Below, piece by piece: positions 21,887 through 30,129 of a stretch of 53,987 nucleotides of DNA. Below the pieces are notes generated by a model. The model searched no databases. It had not been told where the DNA came from and saw nothing but the letters and a program-made list of their open reading frames with translations. The stretch's first letter is position 1. Every line of letters begins with the position of its first letter. The position numbers and the translations under genes were made by a program. This DNA is from an uncultured Actinomycetes bacterium (lineage in GTDB: Bacteria > Actinomycetota > Geothermincolia > Geothermincolales > RBG-13-55-18), in the NCBI GenBank assembly GCA_937128055.1, contig CAKZMC010000160.1:1-53987 (forward strand), written 5' to 3'.

Positions 21887-21961
21887 GGGCGTTTAGCTCA
21901 GCGGGAGAGCGCCTGCCTTACAAGCAGGAGGTCGTGGGTTCAAATCCCGCAACGCCCACCA
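21887..21961 (+). tRNA. tRNA-Val (anticodon TAC)
   Basis: A complete cloverleaf: acceptor GGGCGTT / AACGCCC, D-arm around GCTCAGCGGGAGAGC, anticodon stem CCTGC/GCAGG with loop CTTACAA (TAC at 21919-21921), and T-loop GGTTCAAAT. Discriminator A and an encoded CCA (21959-21961) follow. This gene is the sequence source, or a close relative of it, for two degenerate tRNA fragments near 23.5 kb. Confidence 0.97.
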
Positions 21962-23385: not shown

Positions 23386-23486
23386 CCTGAGATGCCGGTA
23401 ATGCAAGCGGGGCGGCTCGGGAATACGCGGTTTCCCTTCATCGCCCGCCGCGCTTTTTTGCTGCATTTGACAGGGGGCATGCGACC

Positions 23487-23536
23487 CAGCGGGTGAGCGC
23501 CTACCTTACAGGCAAGAGGTCATGGGTTCAAATCCC
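23487..23536 (+). repeat. Degenerate tRNA-Val fragment, forward copy
   Basis: These 50 nt match tRNA-Val positions 21899-21948 at 45 of 50 sites with no gaps, from the D-loop to the T-stem. The anticodon and T-loop segments are kept but the acceptor stem is missing on both sides. It cannot fold as a full tRNA and is a remnant. It directly adjoins the repeat unit 23537-23630. Confidence 0.85.
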
Positions 23537-23630
23537 TTAAGGCCCTTGGAAGACCTATCCCCACTTATCGTCCTGGGGGAGGCGGTATGAAAAAGGGCCA
23601 CGGTGGCCCCATGTTATTGGTGGGCGCTAA
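23537..23630 (+). repeat. tRNA-associated ~90-bp repeat unit, copy 1
   Basis: This segment matches the reverse complement of the unit at 29634-29727 at about 91 of 94 positions. It starts TTAAGGC, passes through CCCCACTTATCGTCCTGGGG and a GGGCCACGGTGGCCC hairpin, and ends TTGGTGGGCGCTAA. Read on the minus strand it is a tRNA-Val 3' end with CCA, then a short spacer, then an intrinsic terminator (hairpin plus TTTTT). Flanking it are the forward and reverse tRNA-Val fragments, so the whole 23487-23664 block is a large imperfect palindrome. Confidence 0.8.
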
Positions 23631-23664
23631 AGGATTTGAACCCATGACTTCCTGCTTGTAAGGC
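23618..23664 (-). repeat. Degenerate tRNA-Val 3' half, reverse copy
   Basis: On the minus strand these 47 nt match tRNA-Val 21915-21961 at 41 positions: anticodon loop, T-arm, acceptor strand and CCA. The 5' half is missing. With the forward fragment at 23487-23536 it can form a 24-bp stem with two mismatches. The tail runs straight into the repeat unit's terminator. Confidence 0.85.
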
Positions 23665-23694
23665 CTATCCAGATTAGAAACCAAGGATTGCGGC

Positions 23695-24360
23695 TCAGGA
23701 GAAGAGGCCCTCGCGGAAGGCTTTTAGTGCATAGTCGCGGTCGTTTTCAACCAACCCTCGAATGGCCCGCGATGCTTCCTCAGCGTCTCTGCCCGTGAAC
23801 GCGTCCATGGCCTCCTGGAAAAACTTGAGATTTTCCAGGAGGTTTTCTTTCTGCATGATCAGAGCGGCGTATTCAATTCGTGCGGTAATAGGCCATAGAT
23901 ACAGCACCACGTCCTCCAGGATCTTGTTCTTACTGGATCTGCAAGAATGGTAAGCGACCTGAAAGGAGCCCTCGAGGTAGCCCTCGAGATCACCCGTTCT
24001 GGCGCTCTCACGGAGCTTCTCCAGCGCCTTTTCTATGTTCAGGAAGCTTCCCTCGTCTTGATTCTCCACCCCCCTGAAAGCAACCAGGCCGAGGATCTCC
24101 TTCAGCACGTCCGCAAGCCAGATTATTGTTTCCTCCGTTATCTCGGACACTCTCGCTCCGCGGCGCGGCGTAAGCTCCACCAGCTTCTGCTTTTCCAAGA
24201 TGCGAAGCGCCTCTCGCAAAGGTGAACGGCTCACGCCGAGCTCGTCAGCAAGTCTCGTCTCGACGATCTTCTGGCCCGGCTTCATCTCCAGGCTGATGAT
24301 CCTCTGACTGAGATAGGCCGCTATCTGCTCGGGAAGGTTTTCCGATGGTTTGAAGGGCAT
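23695..24360 (-). CDS. GntR-family regulator, FadR/FCD subgroup
   Basis: This 221-aa protein has an N-terminal winged helix (ETRLADELGVSRSPLREALR, about residues 35-54) and an all-helical C-terminal FCD ligand domain. FCD regulators bind small organic acids and usually repress neighbouring catabolic genes. It is divergent from the glycyl-radical enzyme gene. Repeated ATACAAT motifs over that gene's promoter are the likely operator. An effector related to the enzyme's substrate is inferred. Confidence 0.9.
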   Translation of the reverse strand: MPFKPSENLPEQIAAYLSQRIISLEMKPGQKIVETRLADELGVSRSPLREALRILEKQKLVELTPRRGARVSEITEETIIWLADVLKEILGLVAFRGVENQDEGSFLNIEKALEKLRESARTGDLEGYLEGSFQVAYHSCRSSKNKILEDVVLYLWPITARIEYAALIMQKENLLENLKFFQEAMDAFTGRDAEEASRAIRGLVENDRDYALKAFREGLFS

Positions 24361-24520
24361 ATCTGGCTCCCCGGGAATACACAGCCGCCGTTTGCCTGTT
24401 CCGAAAACGTGGTCCTTATCATCATGTAAGGATTTTACTTTATTGCAGGCGAATGCGGAACGTAACCATGCTGCGCATGCTCTTTCAGGCGGGAAGCGTC
24501 TGTTGCTTGGCAGAGAATCT

Positions 24521-24580
24521 TATTGATGATTATTGATGAAGAGCTTGACATAGCATACAGTATACAATATACAATATGAT
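24521..24580 (+). promoter_or_regulatory. Promoter and operator region of the glycyl-radical enzyme operon
   Basis: A perfect -35 TTGACA (24545-24550) is 17 bp from TATACA (24568-24573). The -10 lies inside a run of ATACAAT, ATACAAT and ATGATACAA repeats (about 24562-24583), the type of TTGTAT-containing site bound by FCD regulators. A 10-bp tandem repeat (TATTGATGAT / TATTGATGAA, 24521-24540) sits just upstream of the -35. GntR binding here would block polymerase; this is inference. Confidence 0.7.
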
Positions 24581-24803
24581 ACAAAGGAATCTATGAGCCT
24601 GAATCGATCGATGGTCGCTATTCGCGAAGTAGTTGGGCGGATTCATGCGCCATTTTAGGGCTGTTCCTGCGGCTCTAGCTGCGACGTGGCGGTGGCTTTC
24701 TGGTCGACACAGGAACGGAGGAAGCGAAAACACGTGAAGATTTTTCGGATTTCAGCATATCGGTCGGCGTTGTTCTCCAGAGGGGAAGGGGGAGGTGTCT
24801 CGC
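24581..24803 (+). other. Long 5' leader of the glycyl-radical enzyme mRNA
   Basis: If transcription starts near 24580, the leader is about 220 nt, unusually long for this window. It contains a possible long-range stem: GTTCCTG near 24661 with CAGGAAC near 24710. It ends with GGAGGTG before ATG 24804. I cannot match it to a known riboswitch class. No open reading frame in it looks real. Confidence 0.4.
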
Positions 24804-27473
24804 ATGGGCGTCGCTGTTAAGCAATTGAACGCATCCCGCATCACCAAGGCAGTCCAGATAAAGGACGCCGAGCGGCCTTCGGTGAGCATGCCGGTCGAAG
24901 TCAAGCTTGATCCCAACGTCAGGATCTGCACAGAGCGCGCTGAGCTCGTTACTGAATCCTACCGCATGACGGAAGGGGAACCCTGGGTGATCAGGAGGGC
25001 GAAAGCGCTCGACCACCTCCTGCGCAACATGACCATCTACATACTGGAGGGCGAGCAGATAGTGGGCAATTACGCCAGTACCCCGGATAGCCTGCCTACC
25101 TACCCGGAGATATCATGCCGCTGGCTGGATGAGGAACTCGAGGGCGCTTTCAGGGAAAACATCGATGAAGCGGGCAGGGCGAGGCTGCGAGAGATTCATT
25201 CCTTCTGGTACGAGCGGAACGTCGAGGGCAGGATACTGGCCACCTTGCCCGATGACCTCAGAGTTTTTATCGAGAAGAGCAAGTCCACGGCCATGTTCAC
25301 CATCTTCTGGCCTTTGGGGTGCTTCACCCTCGATCTCAGGCATTGGGTTTTCCCCAGGGGGCTGCGCGGTATCGTCGAGGAGATAGGCAGGCTGCGCGGG
25401 GAGCTGCGTGCGGATGATCCGGAATACGGTGAGAAGAAGGATTTCTACGACGCCGCCGAGATATGCTGCGAGGCGGCGATTGCTTTCGCGCGGCGCTACG
25501 CGGAACTGGCTCGTAAGAAAGCGGCCTCCGCACGAGGAAAGGTCAGGGAAGATTGCCTCAGGGTAGCAGAAGTATGTTCGCGCGTGCCCGAGAACCCGCC
25601 CCGGACCTTCCACGAGGCGCTGCAGGCGGTTTTCTTCTGCCACCTGATCAGCGCGCAGATAGACTGGTACAGCGTGGGCCTAGGCCAGCGTTTAGACCAG
25701 CTTCTCTGGCCGTATTACGAAGCCGATAAGGAAGCCGGGAATATCGACTACGACCGCGCCGTGGAGCTGCTCGAGTTCCTCTGGATCAAGCTGGACGATC
25801 TGGGACAGATAAACCCCGTGACCACCTCTATCTACCAGGCGGGTGGCACGAAGTTCCAGAACATCTCGATCGGCGGGGTGGATGAGCACGGCAACGACGC
25901 CTCCAACGAGCTTTCCCTGGCAGTTTTGGACGCGACCATCGATGTACGTACGCCCCAGCCGTCCATATGCCTGCTCTTCCACGAGAAAATGGACCCGAGG
26001 CTTCTGGATAAGGCCATAGAATGCATTGCAACAGGCCAGGGACAGCCTGCCATATTCAACAACGACGTCTGCGTGAAATGGCACCTGGACAAGGCGCTGG
26101 AGATACTGTACCCGGAGTCGGGGGTCCATATCGGCGTGCCGTGTCTCGGTCTGGTGCAGAAAGCGGATCGGGTTGTGAGGAGGATGATAGCGCGGCTGCC
26201 GAGGCGCGTTCGCCAGCGAATCGAGTTATCCATAGACGAATGGCCCAATGCGGTGTACACGGGCGGGGGCGCCGTCGGGGATGCGTTGCGCAAGGTCGCA
26301 AAGAAAACGGGTTTCTGGGACGCCGAGAAAGGGATGGCGATAGCTCGCGGCTGGGCTCCGACCGCTTGCGTCGGAGGCGGACTGCAGGGCAGAGTGACCA
26401 TCCAGGGGACCCTTACTTCGATCCTCATCTTCACGGTCCTCGATTTCGTCAAATGCTTCGAGTACGTGATGTACCAGGGCGTCGAGCCGGAGACCGGTGA
26501 GCTGGTGGGGGCGCCCACGCCCGACCCCCGTACTTTTAAGACCTACGAGGAATTCCTCGAGGCTTTCATGCGGCAGATCGAGTTCCAGGTAGACCGGGCC
26601 AACCGCGCCTACCAGGTTGCGGAGAAGATTTACGAAGAACAGATGCCGCGACCATTCGCCTCGGCCTGCACGGAGACCTGCGTGAGGCGCGGTAGGGACG
26701 GAATGAGGAAGGGCGATGCGTCCATAAGCGAGATCTTCAGCATGGGCAGCGTGAACGCTGCCGAATGCCTCGCAGCGGTGAAGAGACTGGTTTTCGAGGA
26801 AAAATCCGTCACCATGGACGAACTGATCGCCGCCTGCGCGGCCAACTGGGAAGGTTACGAGGACCTGCACCGCAAGTGCCTGGAGGTGCCGAAGTTCGGC
26901 AACGACGACGATTACGTGGACGGCATCCTGGCAGAATTCTACCGCAAGGCACAGGCAGTGGTGCATTCCCACAGGGACCACTGGGGAAACGGCCTGCAGT
27001 TGGAGTCATCGCTCGCGGCCGGATATTATGTGGGCGGCCTCGTCTGCGGCGCTACCCCGGATGGTCGGGTCAAGGGAGAGACGGTCTCCGACGGACAGCT
27101 CTCTCCCATGCACGGGCGCGACGTGAAAGGACCTACGGCGGTACTGAAATCCTGCTCCAAGGTCGATCCTCACAAGACCTGGAACCAGTTATGCAACCAA
27201 AAGATAAACCCCGCCTTCCTCAAGGGCGAGAATCGCAAGCTCTTTGCCGATTACCTGCGCACCTGGCTGAAGTTCGGCAACTGGCACGTACAGTTCAACT
27301 GCCAGAGCGCCGAGGAGCTCAGGGATGCCGTGGCGCACCCTGAAAGGCACAAGGACCTGATCGTGCGGGTGGCCGGGTACAGCGCATATTTCATTGACCT
27401 GGCTCCAGGTCTGCAGCAGGATATCATCGCCCGCACGGAACAGGACCTGAGCGAGTTCGCCAGCAGAGCGTAA
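24804..27473 (+). CDS. Glycyl-radical enzyme of the pyruvate formate-lyase superfamily, substrate unknown
   Basis: This 889-aa oxygen-sensitive enzyme has the C-terminal glycyl-radical motif RVAGYSAYF (Gly858) and an N-terminal PFL-like domain. The active-site loop reads GWAPTACVGGGLQG, with Cys522 as the presumed thiyl site. Most dehydratases and decarboxylases of this family have GCVEP there; the Glu is replaced by Gly. Length is near that of arylacetate decarboxylases and benzylsuccinate synthases rather than PFL (about 760). The adjacent activase has the two-cluster insert usual for non-PFL members. No microcompartment or small-subunit genes are present. ATG 24804 has GGAGGTG 6 nt upstream. 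The reaction cannot be named from sequence. Confidence 0.9.
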   Translation: MGVAVKQLNASRITKAVQIKDAERPSVSMPVEVKLDPNVRICTERAELVTESYRMTEGEPWVIRRAKALDHLLRNMTIYILEGEQIVGNYASTPDSLPTYPEISCRWLDEELEGAFRENIDEAGRARLREIHSFWYERNVEGRILATLPDDLRVFIEKSKSTAMFTIFWPLGCFTLDLRHWVFPRGLRGIVEEIGRLRGELRADDPEYGEKKDFYDAAEICCEAAIAFARRYAELARKKAASARGKVREDCLRVAEVCSRVPENPPRTFHEALQAVFFCHLISAQIDWYSVGLGQRLDQLLWPYYEADKEAGNIDYDRAVELLEFLWIKLDDLGQINPVTTSIYQAGGTKFQNISIGGVDEHGNDASNELSLAVLDATIDVRTPQPSICLLFHEKMDPRLLDKAIECIATGQGQPAIFNNDVCVKWHLDKALEILYPESGVHIGVPCLGLVQKADRVVRRMIARLPRRVRQRIELSIDEWPNAVYTGGGAVGDALRKVAKKTGFWDAEKGMAIARGWAPTACVGGGLQGRVTIQGTLTSILIFTVLDFVKCFEYVMYQGVEPETGELVGAPTPDPRTFKTYEEFLEAFMRQIEFQVDRANRAYQVAEKIYEEQMPRPFASACTETCVRRGRDGMRKGDASISEIFSMGSVNAAECLAAVKRLVFEEKSVTMDELIAACAANWEGYEDLHRKCLEVPKFGNDDDYVDGILAEFYRKAQAVVHSHRDHWGNGLQLESSLAAGYYVGGLVCGATPDGRVKGETVSDGQLSPMHGRDVKGPTAVLKSCSKVDPHKTWNQLCNQKINPAFLKGENRKLFADYLRTWLKFGNWHVQFNCQSAEELRDAVAHPERHKDLIVRVAGYSAYFIDLAPGLQQDIIARTEQDLSEFASRA

Positions 27474-27523
27474 TCGGAAGACAGCCTTTCTCCAGCTGCT
27501 TGATGGCAGGGGAAAGGCGTGAG

Positions 27524-28546
27524 ATGACCGCGCTGGGGAAAATGGGCTGGAGACGCAATAACAGTTTTAAGGGCTTAAGCGGGAGGTCCGGTCGTCGTGG
27601 CGGTGACGACGTTGTGGAGGGCCTGGTCTTCAACATCCAGAAATTCAGCATCCATGATGGCCCCGGCATCAGGACTACCGTCTTCCTCAAGGGATGTCCC
27701 CTGCGCTGCCCCTGGTGCTCCAACCCCGAATCCATCAACCCCTTTCCAGAGGTGCTCGCCAAGTTCGAAAACCTCTGCCTGGATTGCGGCAGGTGCAACG
27801 AGGTCTGCCCTCGCGAAGCCATCGTGGTCACCAAGAAGGATCGTGCCGACGTCGACGACGGCGGGCACATGCGCTCAATAGACCGTGATCTCTGCGAGCG
27901 GTGCATGAAATGCGTCGAGGTATGTCCCAGCGGCGCGTTGAGCAAGGTGGGCGAGGTAAGAACGGTGGGCGAGATAATGGGCCTGGTGGAGCAAGACCGC
28001 CTCTTCTATGAGACCAGCGGCGGAGGCATAACCCTATCGGGGGGAGAACCGCTGTTGCAGCCGCACTTCACCCTTGCGCTATTACGGGAAGCGAAGAGGA
28101 GAAGCATCCACACCGCCGTGGACACCAGCGGCCACGCCCCCCGTGAGGTGCTGGAAGGCGTTCTGCCGTATGTGGACCTGGTGCTCTTTGACATCAAGCA
28201 CGCCGACCCGGTGATCCATCGCGATACCGTGGGGGTGGATAACCTGCTGATATTTAACAACCTTGAATATCTTTCTGGTAAGACGAGAATATGGATCCGC
28301 GTGCCTCTTATACCGGGTTTCAACGACGATAAGGCGGGAATCTGTGCGATAGCGGAAAAGATACGTCGCTTGTGTTTCGATAAGCTGTGCATTCTGCCAT
28401 ATCACAACTGGGGGAGCGGAAAGTACGCCGCTTTAGGGAGAAGTTATCCTCTGAGCGAAAAAGATGAGACCAATCCCGCCTGCCCCTGCCTGGCGCAGGC
28501 GCTTTTCAGGGCGGCGGGCGTGCAGGATTGCGAAATCGTGCGATGA
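27524..28546 (+). CDS. Glycyl-radical enzyme activating enzyme (radical SAM)
   Basis: This protein of about 340 aa abstracts the hydrogen that makes the glycyl radical on the enzyme encoded upstream. It has the radical-SAM cluster GCPLRCPWC (Cys58, 62, 65 with this start). An inserted ferredoxin-like domain carries two 4Fe-4S motifs (CLDCGRCNEVCP and CERCMKCVEVCP). SAM-binding GGGITLSGGEPLLQP follows. The start is uncertain: most relatives begin just before GLVFNIQKFSIHDGPG, so GTG 27614 is possible; ATG 27524 has AAAGG 6 nt upstream. It lies 50 bp after the enzyme gene, in one operon. Confidence 0.9.
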   Translation: MTALGKMGWRRNNSFKGLSGRSGRRGGDDVVEGLVFNIQKFSIHDGPGIRTTVFLKGCPLRCPWCSNPESINPFPEVLAKFENLCLDCGRCNEVCPREAIVVTKKDRADVDDGGHMRSIDRDLCERCMKCVEVCPSGALSKVGEVRTVGEIMGLVEQDRLFYETSGGGITLSGGEPLLQPHFTLALLREAKRRSIHTAVDTSGHAPREVLEGVLPYVDLVLFDIKHADPVIHRDTVGVDNLLIFNNLEYLSGKTRIWIRVPLIPGFNDDKAGICAIAEKIRRLCFDKLCILPYHNWGSGKYAALGRSYPLSEKDETNPACPCLAQALFRAAGVQDCEIVR

Positions 28547-28652
28547 TGGTGGGGGCCAGGATCTGGCTGCCACTCGAACGGAGTCGGAGTGCGTTAAACT
28601 CGTCTTCAACAGTTACATTTTGAGATTACCAGGTAAGGTGGCGTCAAGGGAT

Positions 28653-28681
28653 TTGGAAGGCCTGTCCCCACTTGTCGTCCT
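28653..28681 (+). repeat. Partial copy of the ~90-bp repeat
   Basis: These 29 nt match the repeat-unit core (TTGGAAGACCTGTCCCCACT and on through CGTCCT) with two differences. The hairpin and tRNA-end parts are missing. It lies about 100 bp after the activase gene and looks like a truncated copy in the same orientation as the unit at 23537. Confidence 0.65.
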
Positions 28682-28727
28682 CGCTTGGCAGTGATGGTTA
28701 TGCTGAATACGCGAGGAAGTCGATTTT

Positions 28728-29120
28728 TCAGTCCGAAGCGTGTGTCTCGAAAAAGGCAACTGCTTCTTCCTTGGATATATCCCCCGCTGCAACCCCGAGG
28801 CAAAGCCGTTTTAGTTCCTCATTCGACGCCTCGAGCTGCACGCCGTTGATGTTCAAGAATATCTCGGCGGCTACAACCGCCGTACGCTTGTTGCCGTCAA
28901 GAAATGGGTGGTTCTTGCAGATATGAAAGAGGTACGCCGCGGCCATGGCGGGAAGGCTCTTATGAAGGAACTCACCTGCTAAGGCAGCAGTCGGCATCGC
29001 CACCGCACTTTCGAGCATTCCACGGTCTGCGATGCCCTCGGCCCCGCCGAACTCGGCTATCATGCGTGCGTGGATCTTCAGTATGTCTTCGAACGAGAGG
29101 AATACGGGTTCCACGCTCAC
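28728..29120 (-). CDS. Doc/Fic-family toxin
   Basis: This 130-aa Fic-fold protein has the catalytic motif HPFLDGNKRTAVVAAEIFL, in the form typical of Doc toxins. Doc enzymes phosphorylate elongation factor Tu, whereas other Fic proteins AMPylate. Length is normal for Doc (about 125). It starts with GTG overlapping the antitoxin stop by 4 nt, so the two are translationally coupled. Toxin activity is inferred from family and partner. Confidence 0.88.
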   Translation of the reverse strand: MSVEPVFLSFEDILKIHARMIAEFGGAEGIADRGMLESAVAMPTAALAGEFLHKSLPAMAAAYLFHICKNHPFLDGNKRTAVVAAEIFLNINGVQLEASNEELKRLCLGVAAGDISKEEAVAFFETHASD

Positions 29121-29350
29121 GAATCAGCCAGTTCCTTGAGCACCTTCCCGCGCTCCCCCACGATTCGGTCCAGGTGACGCTCGAGCTCCTCCGGGTCCAC
29201 CCGCCGAGGGCTCACGGGAGTGATGATTATCGACCCGTTGCTCACCGTCAACTGGACTTCCTTGCCCTCTTCAAGCCCGACCATCTCCATGATCGGCAGA
29301 TCCAGTATGAGGGCGTTGCTGTTTCCCACTTTCTGCAGTCTCTTTATCAT
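29117..29350 (-). CDS. AbrB/MazE-type antitoxin
   Basis: This 77-aa protein has an N-terminal swapped-hairpin AbrB domain (KVGNSNALILDLPIMEMVGL) and a charged helical tail that should bind and neutralise the Fic toxin downstream. It is the first gene of the pair and likely represses its own operon at the ATGTTATAACAT palindrome upstream. AbrB-Doc combinations are known, though Phd-Doc is more common. Confidence 0.85.
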   Translation of the reverse strand: MIKRLQKVGNSNALILDLPIMEMVGLEEGKEVQLTVSNGSIIITPVSPRRVDPEELERHLDRIVGERGKVLKELADS

Positions 29351-29365
29351 TGTGCCGACTCCTTT

Positions 29366-29406
29366 ATGTTATAACATAATTATAACATCATTTGATCCCA
29401 AGTCAA
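29366..29406 (-). promoter_or_regulatory. Promoter and palindromic operator of the toxin-antitoxin operon
   Basis: On the minus strand TTGACT (29406-29401) is 16 bp from TATAAT (29384-29379). A perfect 12-bp palindrome ATGTTATAACAT (29366-29377) and a second TGTTATAAT half overlap the -10. This is the expected layout for autorepression by an AbrB-type antitoxin. Confidence 0.7.
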
Positions 29407-29534
29407 TCCCGCGCAGCAAGACAAGAATCGCAGCCCCTTATAGGGCATGACCGCAGAAGCTGCTGGTTGGCGCCGGCAGACAGATCAAGCCGAGGCAGCA
29501 TTAAGCGAGGCATGGAGTCCGGCTTCTATTGCTC

Positions 29535-29636
29535 TGGTGGGCGTTAAGGCCTCTGGAAGACCTATTCCAGTTTATCCTACTGGGGGAGGCGGTATGAAAA
29601 AGAGCCGCAGGCGCCCCAAAAATTGGTGGGCGTTAA
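29535..29636 (+). repeat. ~90-bp repeat unit, diverged copy D
   Basis: The unit starts and ends with the same 13 nt, TGGTGGGCGTTAA (29535-29547 and 29624-29636), 89 nt apart. Inside it keeps CTGGAAGACCTATTCC and GGGGGAGGCGGTATGAAAAA, but the hairpin has changed to GAGCCGCAGGCGCCCC. It faces the next unit head to head: 29623-29646 is a perfect 24-bp palindrome. Confidence 0.75.
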
Positions 29637-29727
29637 CGCCCACCAATAACATGGGGCCACCGTGGCCCTTTTTCATACCGCCTCCCCCAGGACGATAAGT
29701 GGGGACAGGTCTTCCAAGCGCCTTAAC
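29634..29727 (-). repeat. ~90-bp repeat unit, conserved copy E
   Basis: This is the reverse complement of the unit at 23537-23630, identical at about 91 of 94 positions despite 6 kb of separation. On the plus strand it reads TTAACGCCCACCA, which equals the tRNA-Val acceptor end with CCA. An intrinsic terminator follows (GGGCCA CCG TGGCCC TTTTT, 29654-29673), then the conserved core. It could terminate plus-strand transcription. Confidence 0.8.
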
Positions 29728-29815
29728 GCCTGCCAATCACCAGGGCCCCTGCGGCCTCCATCACAACGCCTCATCCAGGACGACAAGTGGGGATAGGCCT
29801 CCCCGGGGCCTTAGC
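29723..29815 (-). repeat. ~90-bp repeat unit, diverged copy F
   Basis: This unit follows E in tandem, in the same orientation, 89 nt later. It starts TTAACGCCTGCCA, keeps CAGGACGACAAGTGGGGATA and ends GGCCTTAGCGC. The hairpin is altered to AGGGCCCCTGCGGCCT and has no T-run. Confidence 0.65.
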
Positions 29816-30100
29816 GCACGCGGAGGCATAAAGGCTGAGAGCACCCGCCTCTCCGTGCTAGGACCGGCGAAGTAGCGCCGCGGCCTTGATCGCCGGCGGC
29901 GGGCGGCGGTGAGGCCGACATGCCGCGTGCCGGCCAGCACCGGCACGGTGTAACCGGCCCGATAGCGCGGCAGGGCCGTGAAACGGGCATCCCGCCGCTT
30001 GCCCCTCGCCACCCTCAAAAAGCCCGGTCAAGGAGGCGGAAAAACATCCCCCTTAAAAGGGCTTCGCGCTTGCGTTCTGAGGATTTGCGGGAAACATGCC
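29816..30100. other. Intergenic stretch after the repeats
   Basis: About 285 bp of GC-rich sequence. ORFs in it are Arg-rich and lack family features. Several small inverted segments (GCCGGC, GGTGCCGG-like) occur. I find no gene, tRNA or known element. A minus-strand ORF (29761-30018) covers much of it but looks like composition bias. Confidence 0.35.
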
Positions 30101-30129
30101 TTGATATATAAGCACGAAGGGGTTATATT
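30101..30129 (+). promoter_or_regulatory. Promoter of the RNA-binding protein gene
   Basis: TTGATA (30101-30106) is 17 bp from TATATT (30124-30129). Transcription should start near 30136, leaving a leader of about 79 nt that contains an intrinsic terminator. Confidence 0.65.

What the first reader, a model, noticed from the sequence alone, without database searches (positions are those of the whole stretch)
23487..23664. Palindromic block built from two tRNA-Val fragments and a terminator-bearing repeat
A forward tRNA-Val fragment (45/50 match to 21899-21948) and a reverse tRNA-Val 3' half with CCA (41/47 match) bracket a segment that recurs at 29.6 kb. Read on the minus strand, the block is a tRNA-Val 3' end, CCA, a 7-nt spacer and a strong intrinsic terminator. 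It thus looks like a duplicated tRNA tail plus its terminator, arranged as a mobile or structural cassette. Forward and reverse arms can also form a 24-bp stem. tRNA 3' ends are integration targets, but the opposite orientation and missing integrase do not fit a simple attachment site. The family relation and mobility are inference.
Basis: partly seen in the sequence, partly recalled or inferred. Interest (0 to 1): 0.75.

Follow-up and report, generated by a model that had tools for sequence, protein, structure and literature searches.

The report
tRNA-anchored gene cassette array, internally flipped
The odd palindrome is the scar of one precise DNA flip inside an integron-like string of small mobile gene cassettes that plug into the 3' end of a valine tRNA gene and re-supply its tail and stop signal; such strings, mostly carrying toxin-antitoxin genes, occur in a family of uncultured actinobacteria without any recognisable integron enzyme.

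Summary
The block is one copy of a repeat found in 9 of 15 genomes of this bacterial family (Candidatus Solincola relatives) and in no other species genome scanned. The repeat is a boundary site: TGGTGGGCG|TTAAGG plus about 45 conserved bases. Its left part, read on the other strand, is the tRNA-Val 3' end (TTAACGCCCACCA) followed by an intrinsic terminator. Copies form one-way arrays ending at intact tRNA-Val(TAC) or tRNA-Val(CAC) genes and delimit small cassettes (Doc/AbrB, ParDE, AbiE, Fic, MntA/HepT). The same cassette recurs in different arrays, with homology running from site to site, so cassettes have moved.

The window's palindrome is secondary. Flipping 23541-29632 between two TTAA cores repairs both odd junctions at once: a decayed second tRNA-Val regains its 3' end, two 97%-identical units become tandem, and all sites point one way. 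The reverse tRNA half is a scar of an ordinary anticodon-loop insertion.

No integron integrase or attC-like fold was found; this genome's only tyrosine recombinases are XerC and XerD, so the recombinase is unknown. I file it as a new variant of tRNA-anchored additive islands, with integron-like architecture.

The parts
21887..21961 (+). intact tRNA-Val(TAC), ancestral type (T-stem ...CCCGCAACGCCCACCA)
   Evidence: ARAGORN and Rfam
23475..23540 (+). decayed second tRNA-Val (tRNA2), array type (TTCAAATCCC|TTAA); true 3' end displaced by the inversion
23537..23540 (.). TTAA core, left breakpoint of the inversion (TTCAAATCCC|TTAA|GGCCCTTGG)
23537..23630 (+). gene-less cassette unit: site core plus terminator, now inverted
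23590..23610 (-). intrinsic terminator of the unit (GGGGCCACCGTGGCCCTTTTT on the minus strand)
23618..23664 (-). tRNA-Val 3' half starting at the anticodon loop; displaced half (attR-type scar)
   Evidence: similar halves in L132 and L133
23695..24360 (-). GntR/FCD regulator, island cargo
   Evidence: Pfam
24795..27473 (+). PFL-like glycyl radical enzyme, island cargo
   Evidence: Pfam, NCBIfam
27500..28546 (+). glycyl-radical-enzyme activating protein, island cargo
   Evidence: TIGR02494 above cut-off
28640..28683 (+). cassette boundary site (35 bits)
28728..29120 (-). Doc/Fic toxin gene of a cassette shared with G008
29120..29359 (-). MazE/AbrB-like antitoxin gene of the same cassette
29531..29593 (+). 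cassette boundary site (59 bits)
29633..29636 (.). TTAA core, right breakpoint of the inversion (TGGTGGGCG|TTAA|CGCCCACCA)
29677..29736 (-). cassette boundary site (60 bits)
29767..29817 (-). cassette boundary site, decayed (36 bits)
23416..30125 (.). whole island: 6.7 kb here versus about 590 bp in the sister genome G001

Best explanation
This is a decayed copy of a tRNA-Val-anchored cassette array. Each cassette carries a copy of the tRNA-Val 3' end plus a transcription terminator at one end, genes (mostly toxin-antitoxin pairs) or nothing in the middle, and a conserved recombination half-site at the other end. A site-specific recombinase, not identified, inserts cassettes at the core GTTAAG of the tRNA 3' end, so the tRNA gene keeps a working 3' end and gains a new terminator, and older cassettes are pushed outwards (insertion model inferred). 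In this window the array sat on a second tRNA-Val gene that has since decayed. An ordinary anticodon-loop element once split that tRNA and left the displaced 3' half. Later, one recombination between two TTAA cores, aligned in the wrong direction because TTAA is its own reverse complement, flipped 23541-29632 and made the palindrome. Shown by comparison: arrays, polarity, tRNA anchoring, cassette mobility, the single-inversion solution. Inferred: enzyme, insertion step, order of events.
For: 36 sites of at least 30 bits in the regions read, against a best score of 12 bits in 553 kb of reversed control. Arrays abut intact tRNA-Val(TAC) or (CAC) genes in G002, G006, G008, G012, G014, with a truncated tRNA at a contig end in G010; G006 is bridged across a contig break by a shared ATTGGTGGGCGTTAAGG. 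A terminator follows the tRNA-end copy at 25 of 35 sites, 1.1 expected from shuffles. Same cassettes in different arrays match from site to site: Fic 87% over -41 to 1456 of a 1450 bp cassette; AbiE 75-87% in a TAC array, a CAC array and a third locus, ending at -7 and 2194 of 2189. Undoing one inversion repairs tRNA2 (match 13-75, 94%), gives the best-scoring site of all (71.4 bits) and puts all sites on one strand. The sister genome lacks the island.
Against: No recombinase is identified: no integron integrase over cut-off in 15 genomes, only XerC and XerD here, no serine recombinase in 14 of 15, and the site does not resemble the chromosome's dif. Every genome is a draft, and those that could be named are metagenome assemblies, so the inversion could not be checked against reads. 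The window's array is decayed, so nothing shows present activity. In G002 the tRNA kept its own T-stem next to the array, so the crossover point within the tRNA end may vary.
Confidence: 0.77

Rival explanations
1. A degenerate true integron or CALIN: cassettes were moved by an integron integrase now lost, with attC sites and a tRNA-associated attI.
For: One-way arrays of short cassettes rich in toxin-antitoxin genes, gene-less units, a core GTTAAG like the integron core GTTRRRY, no cis integrase.
Against: Sites lack paired R''/R' boxes and do not fold better than shuffles: mean z 0.06 for the top and -0.34 for the bottom strand of the core. No integron integrase over cut-off in any of 15 genomes. 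Most of the conserved sequence lies on the gene side of the crossover and is conserved as sequence.
Confidence: 0.1
2. Serial insertions of ordinary tRNA-targeting integrative elements (phage satellites) using a trans-acting phage-type integrase; the short units are deletion remnants.
For: A 365-aa phage-type integrase lies next to tRNA-Val(TAC) in G010. Anticodon-loop tRNA halves in the window, G004 and G013 show such elements used this tRNA.
Against: Those scars start at tRNA position 29-31, whereas cassette boundaries lie at the TTAA of the acceptor end. The 90-base units and gene cassettes share one boundary site, and cassette homologies stop at it.
Confidence: 0.15
3. The palindrome is an assembly artefact (chimeric join at repeats) rather than a genomic inversion.
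For: The genome is a 210-contig draft and the two units are 97% identical inverted copies.
Against: The new junctions share only 4 bases (TTAA), far below assembler overlaps, and both junctions are reciprocal and exact.
Confidence: 0.1
4. Chance tRNA-like sequence or dispersed regulatory palindromes unrelated to mobility.
For: None beyond the short length.
Against: Shuffle and reversed controls, array polarity, tRNA anchoring, cassette mobility.
Confidence: 0.01

Closest known systems
Additive flexible genomic islands with tRNA-end direct repeats (Ca. Methylopumilus tRNA-Lys, PMC10872708; Ca. Actinomarinales, PMC7771536; Alteromonas, PMC4119200)
   Same: A tRNA gene is the insertion target, cassettes add up, and each leaves a copy of the tRNA end; no bona fide integron was found among the Methylopumilus insertions.
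   Different: Here cassettes also carry a terminator and a conserved second half-site of about 45 bases, include gene-less 90-base units, use two tRNA-Val isoacceptors, and permit precise inversion through TTAA.
Integrons and CALINs
   Same: One-way arrays of small cassettes, many toxin-antitoxin genes, one shared recombination site per cassette, anchoring at one fixed site.
   Different: No integron integrase, no foldable attC, anchor is a tRNA gene; cassettes carry their own terminator and tRNA tail.
Tycheposons and classical tRNA-integrating islands
   Same: Insertion into tRNA genes with restoration of the tRNA.
   Different: Those described (PMC10872708) are 4-200 kb and carry a tyrosine recombinase; these cassettes are mostly 0.09-2.2 kb and carry none.
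Xer-dependent modules (pdif modules)
   Same: Toxin-antitoxin cassettes without an integrase of their own (from general knowledge).
   Different: The site is unlike the dif of this genome.

Membership tests
tRNA-anchored additive genomic island | cassettes inserted at a tRNA gene, marked by direct repeats of the tRNA end | tested here: met
tRNA-anchored additive genomic island | variable cassette content and presence/absence between related genomes at a conserved location | tested here: met
Integron | integron integrase gene (IntI) | tested here: not met
   TIGR02249 below cut-off in all 15 genomes; the two in this genome are XerC and XerD
Integron | attC sites: single-strand fold with paired R''/R' and L''/L' boxes | tested here: not met
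   core folds no better than shuffles; no second AACGCCC-type box seen upstream of the core
Integron | array of small co-oriented cassettes separated by one type of site | tested here: met
   most but not all genes co-oriented
Classical tRNA integrative element / tycheposon | own tyrosine recombinase in the element | tested here: not met
   none found within the arrays; G000, G004 and G012 have only two tyrosine recombinases genome-wide
Serine-recombinase element | resolvase/invertase gene | tested here: not met
   PF00239 in 1 of 15 genomes only
IS110, IS200/605 or casposon-type mobilisation | transposase or Cas1 present in all array-bearing genomes and tracking the arrays | tested here: inconclusive
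   none of PF01548, PF01797, PF01867 follows array presence
Xer-dependent module | dif-like 28-bp site at the boundaries | tested here: not met
   candidate dif CGCCGATAATATATCTTATGTTAAGTT shares only GTTAAG with the site

The most novel reading that the evidence does not exclude
A distinct, integron-like cassette capture system in which a tRNA-Val gene serves as the primary site, cassettes bring a replacement tRNA 3' end and terminator, the exchange core is palindromic TTAA so that cassettes can insert or flip, and the enzyme is either the housekeeping Xer recombinase or an undescribed recombinase. The conserved half-site may also encode a short peptide ending at a fixed stop codon.
Probability: 0.3. 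Interest if true: 0.8.

Novelty: new variant of a known kind. Interest (0 to 1): 0.62.

Why it matters
Cassette capture with array growth at a fixed site is usually credited to integrons. Here a similar architecture uses a tRNA gene as the anchor, appears to rewrite the 3' end of essential tRNA genes, and lacks any recognisable integron enzyme. It gives tRNA-linked additive islands, usually described only as repeated tRNA ends, a defined cassette unit, a mapped exchange core (TTAA) and a clear search for the missing recombinase. It also warns that tRNA-like palindromes in drafts can be inversion scars.

Tried and rejected
attC-like folding of the core: no signal. Integron integrase: none. Serine recombinase, IS110, IS200/605 and Cas1 as recombinase: absent or not following the arrays. 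dif similarity: only GTTAAG shared. Search for the site in viral contigs, plasmids and phages: nothing. Search for a full-length protein from which the conserved mini-reading frame could derive: only the sites themselves, in 31 genomes of the class. Simple target-site duplication was considered but does not explain why array-bearing tRNAs end ...CCCTTAACG while array-free ones end ...CCCGCAACG or ...CCGCCAACG. Other inverted junctions were sought in the fetched loci: none outside the window. Empty-site test for the AbiE cassette at G001:C8: inconclusive, because G000 carries other DNA between the same flanks.

Full report
What was claimed and what is there. The finding describes 23487-23664 as a palindrome of two tRNA-Val pieces around a terminator-bearing repeat. 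All the stated matches are real: 45/50 (51/59 when extended) forward and 41/47 reverse against the intact tRNA-Val(TAC) at 21887-21961. Both are far above shuffles (alignment scores 43 and 35 against maxima of 15 and 14 in 2000 shuffles), and no other place in the window comes close. The inner segment recurs at 29.6 kb, 97% identical but inverted.

The repeat is a family of boundary sites. In this genome it occurs only near the window's tRNA-Val and at one contig start. A search of 59 related genomes found it in the same bacterial family and, apart from one marginal hit (E = 0.009), nowhere else. Viral contigs, plasmids and phages gave nothing. A profile built from 14 copies found 36 sites of at least 30 bits in the regions read, against a best score of 12.2 bits in 553 kb of reversed sequence. 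By peptide search, 9 of 15 family genomes carry sites and none of 16 others in the class.

Anatomy of a site, in the orientation of 23537: a GC-rich hairpin (typically AAGCCGGGC...GCCCGGCTT), then TGGTGGGCG, then TTAAGG and about 45 further conserved bases. On the opposite strand this reads ...CTTCCAAGGGCC-TTAACGCCCACCA-terminator, so each site ends in the 3' end of tRNA-Val. A terminator-like structure follows the tRNA-end copy at 25 of 35 sites; 1.1 would be expected from shuffles.

Arrays are polar and anchored. Intact tRNA-Val(TAC) genes stand at the end of arrays in G002, G008, G012 and G014, and tRNA-Val(CAC) genes in G002, G006, G012 and G014. In G006 the TAC array runs off one contig with ...ATTGGTGGGCGTTAAGG and the tRNA contig begins with the same 17 bases. 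In G010 a truncated tRNA end closes the array at a contig end. The exceptions are short contigs, half-tRNA scars and a cassette in G001:C8 that lies beside a flavodoxin gene which in G004, G008 and G010 neighbours tRNA-Val(CAC). The window's locus, tRNA-Val(TAC) followed further on by a methyltransferase, a metallophosphoesterase and Nif3, is conserved, with arrays between tRNA and methyltransferase in several genomes and without in others.

Cassettes are mobile units. Cargo includes Doc with MazE/AbrB-like antitoxin, ParE with a ribbon-helix-helix antitoxin, AbiEi with a likely AbiEii partner (no Pfam hit for the partner), Fic, MntA/HepT and an AlbA/MarR-type protein. Gene-less 90-base units also occur. 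Orthologous cassettes sit in different arrays and their homology runs from site to site: Fic in G006 and G014, 87% over -41 to 1456 of a 1450-bp cassette; AbiE in a TAC array (G008), a CAC array (G012), G010 and the G001:C8 locus, 75-87%, ending at -7 and 2194 of 2189 in the G001 comparison.

The window's palindrome is the scar of one inversion. The left junction reads TTCAAATCCC|TTAA|GGCCCTTGG and the right junction TGGTGGGCG|TTAA|CGCCCACCA. Both follow if two same-orientation sites, (tRNA2) TTCAAATCCC-TTAA-CGCCCACCA and (unit) CCAAGGGCC-TTAA-CGCCCACCA, recombined in antiparallel alignment. Flipping 23541-29632 in silico gives tRNA2 its 3' end back (match to positions 13-75, 94%), makes the 97% identical units tandem, turns the half tRNA forward, raises the junction site to 71.4 bits (the best of all) and puts all the sites on one strand. 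No homology other than the palindromic tetramer supports this alignment, so exchange inside TTAA is the simplest reading; that a site-specific enzyme did it is inference. I could not check reads.

Second tRNA and the island. The sister genome G001 is collinear up to window 23415 and again from 30126, with about 590 bp in place of 6.7 kb, and retains a tRNA-5'-like remnant at the same place. So the forward piece is a decayed second tRNA-Val. The reverse piece starts at the anticodon loop, as do half tRNAs in G004 and G013; this is the usual scar of a tyrosine-integrase element, and such an integrase lies next to tRNA-Val in G010. The island also carries a glycyl radical enzyme, its activase and a GntR/FCD regulator.

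What drives it. This 99%-complete genome has two tyrosine recombinases, one over the XerD cut-off and one best matching XerC. No integron integrase passes its cut-off in 15 genomes. Serine recombinases are absent from 14 of 15. IS110, IS200/605 and Cas1 genes do not track the arrays. The chromosome's likely dif shares only GTTAAG with the site. The core does not fold like attC. The recombinase is therefore unknown; Xer, a trans-acting or lost integrase, or an undescribed enzyme remain open.

tRNA rewriting. Array-type tRNA-Val(TAC) genes in G004, G006, G008, G012 and G014 end ATGGG...CCCTTAACGCCCACCA; array-free ones end GTGGG...CCCGCAACG or have CCGCCAACG. In G006, G008, G012 and G014 the array type is the only TAC copy found, so it is presumably functional. 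This fits cassettes that bring their own tRNA tail, but G002 kept its own T-stem beside an array.

Comparison with known systems. The nearest described kind is the additive genomic island with repeated tRNA ends: the last 20 nt of tRNA-Lys in Ca. Methylopumilus (PMC10872708), tRNA repeats in Ca. Actinomarinales (PMC7771536), tRNA-targeted cassettes in Alteromonas (PMC4119200). The present system meets those features and adds a defined cassette with terminator and second half-site. It works like an integron in array logic but fails two defining integron tests (integrase, attC), so it is not filed as one.

Noticed in passing
window 23537-23590, 29544-29596, and the other sites: The conserved half-site looks protein-coding in one frame, (WWA)LRPLEDLTPLVVLEEAV-stop: conservative changes (mean BLOSUM 0.94 against 0.09 for column-permuted controls), TGA/TAG/TAA at the same codon in 28 of 36 sites, and conservation ends at that stop. 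No consistent start codon and no parent protein were found. Sites are related and one frame was adjusted by one base, so the statistics are approximate.
   Followed up: partly
L046 7313-7387 and L038 4564-4638 versus L037 11629-11703: tRNA-Val(CAC) of G006 and G012 has the acceptor stem GGGCGTT/AACGCCC of tRNA-Val(TAC), while G014 keeps GGGCGCT/AGCGCCC; suggests cassette insertion or gene conversion rewrote both strands of an essential tRNA.
   Followed up: partly
L038 4719-6128: A group II intron reverse transcriptase/maturase gene lies just downstream of the tRNA-Val(CAC) terminator at the head of an array.
   Followed up: no
L120 1497-2594: A 365-aa phage-type tyrosine integrase ends 86 bases from the 3' end of array-free tRNA-Val(TAC) in G010; candidate source of the anticodon-loop tRNA halves.
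   Followed up: partly
window 24795-28546: Glycyl radical enzyme with activase and divergent GntR/FCD regulator inside the island; below the cut-off of every substrate-specific NCBIfam model, so substrate unknown.
   Followed up: partly
L122, between the window-22462 homologue and the RRM gene: At the island's position G001 has a short reading frame that looks (by eye) like a truncated heme-NO-binding domain, so the interval itself is variable.
   Followed up: no
L035 and L036: Two G014 contigs (C2 and C40) end in genes that are neighbours in L038, so they are probably one array of about 10 kb or more between methyltransferase and tRNA-Val(TAC).
   Followed up: no
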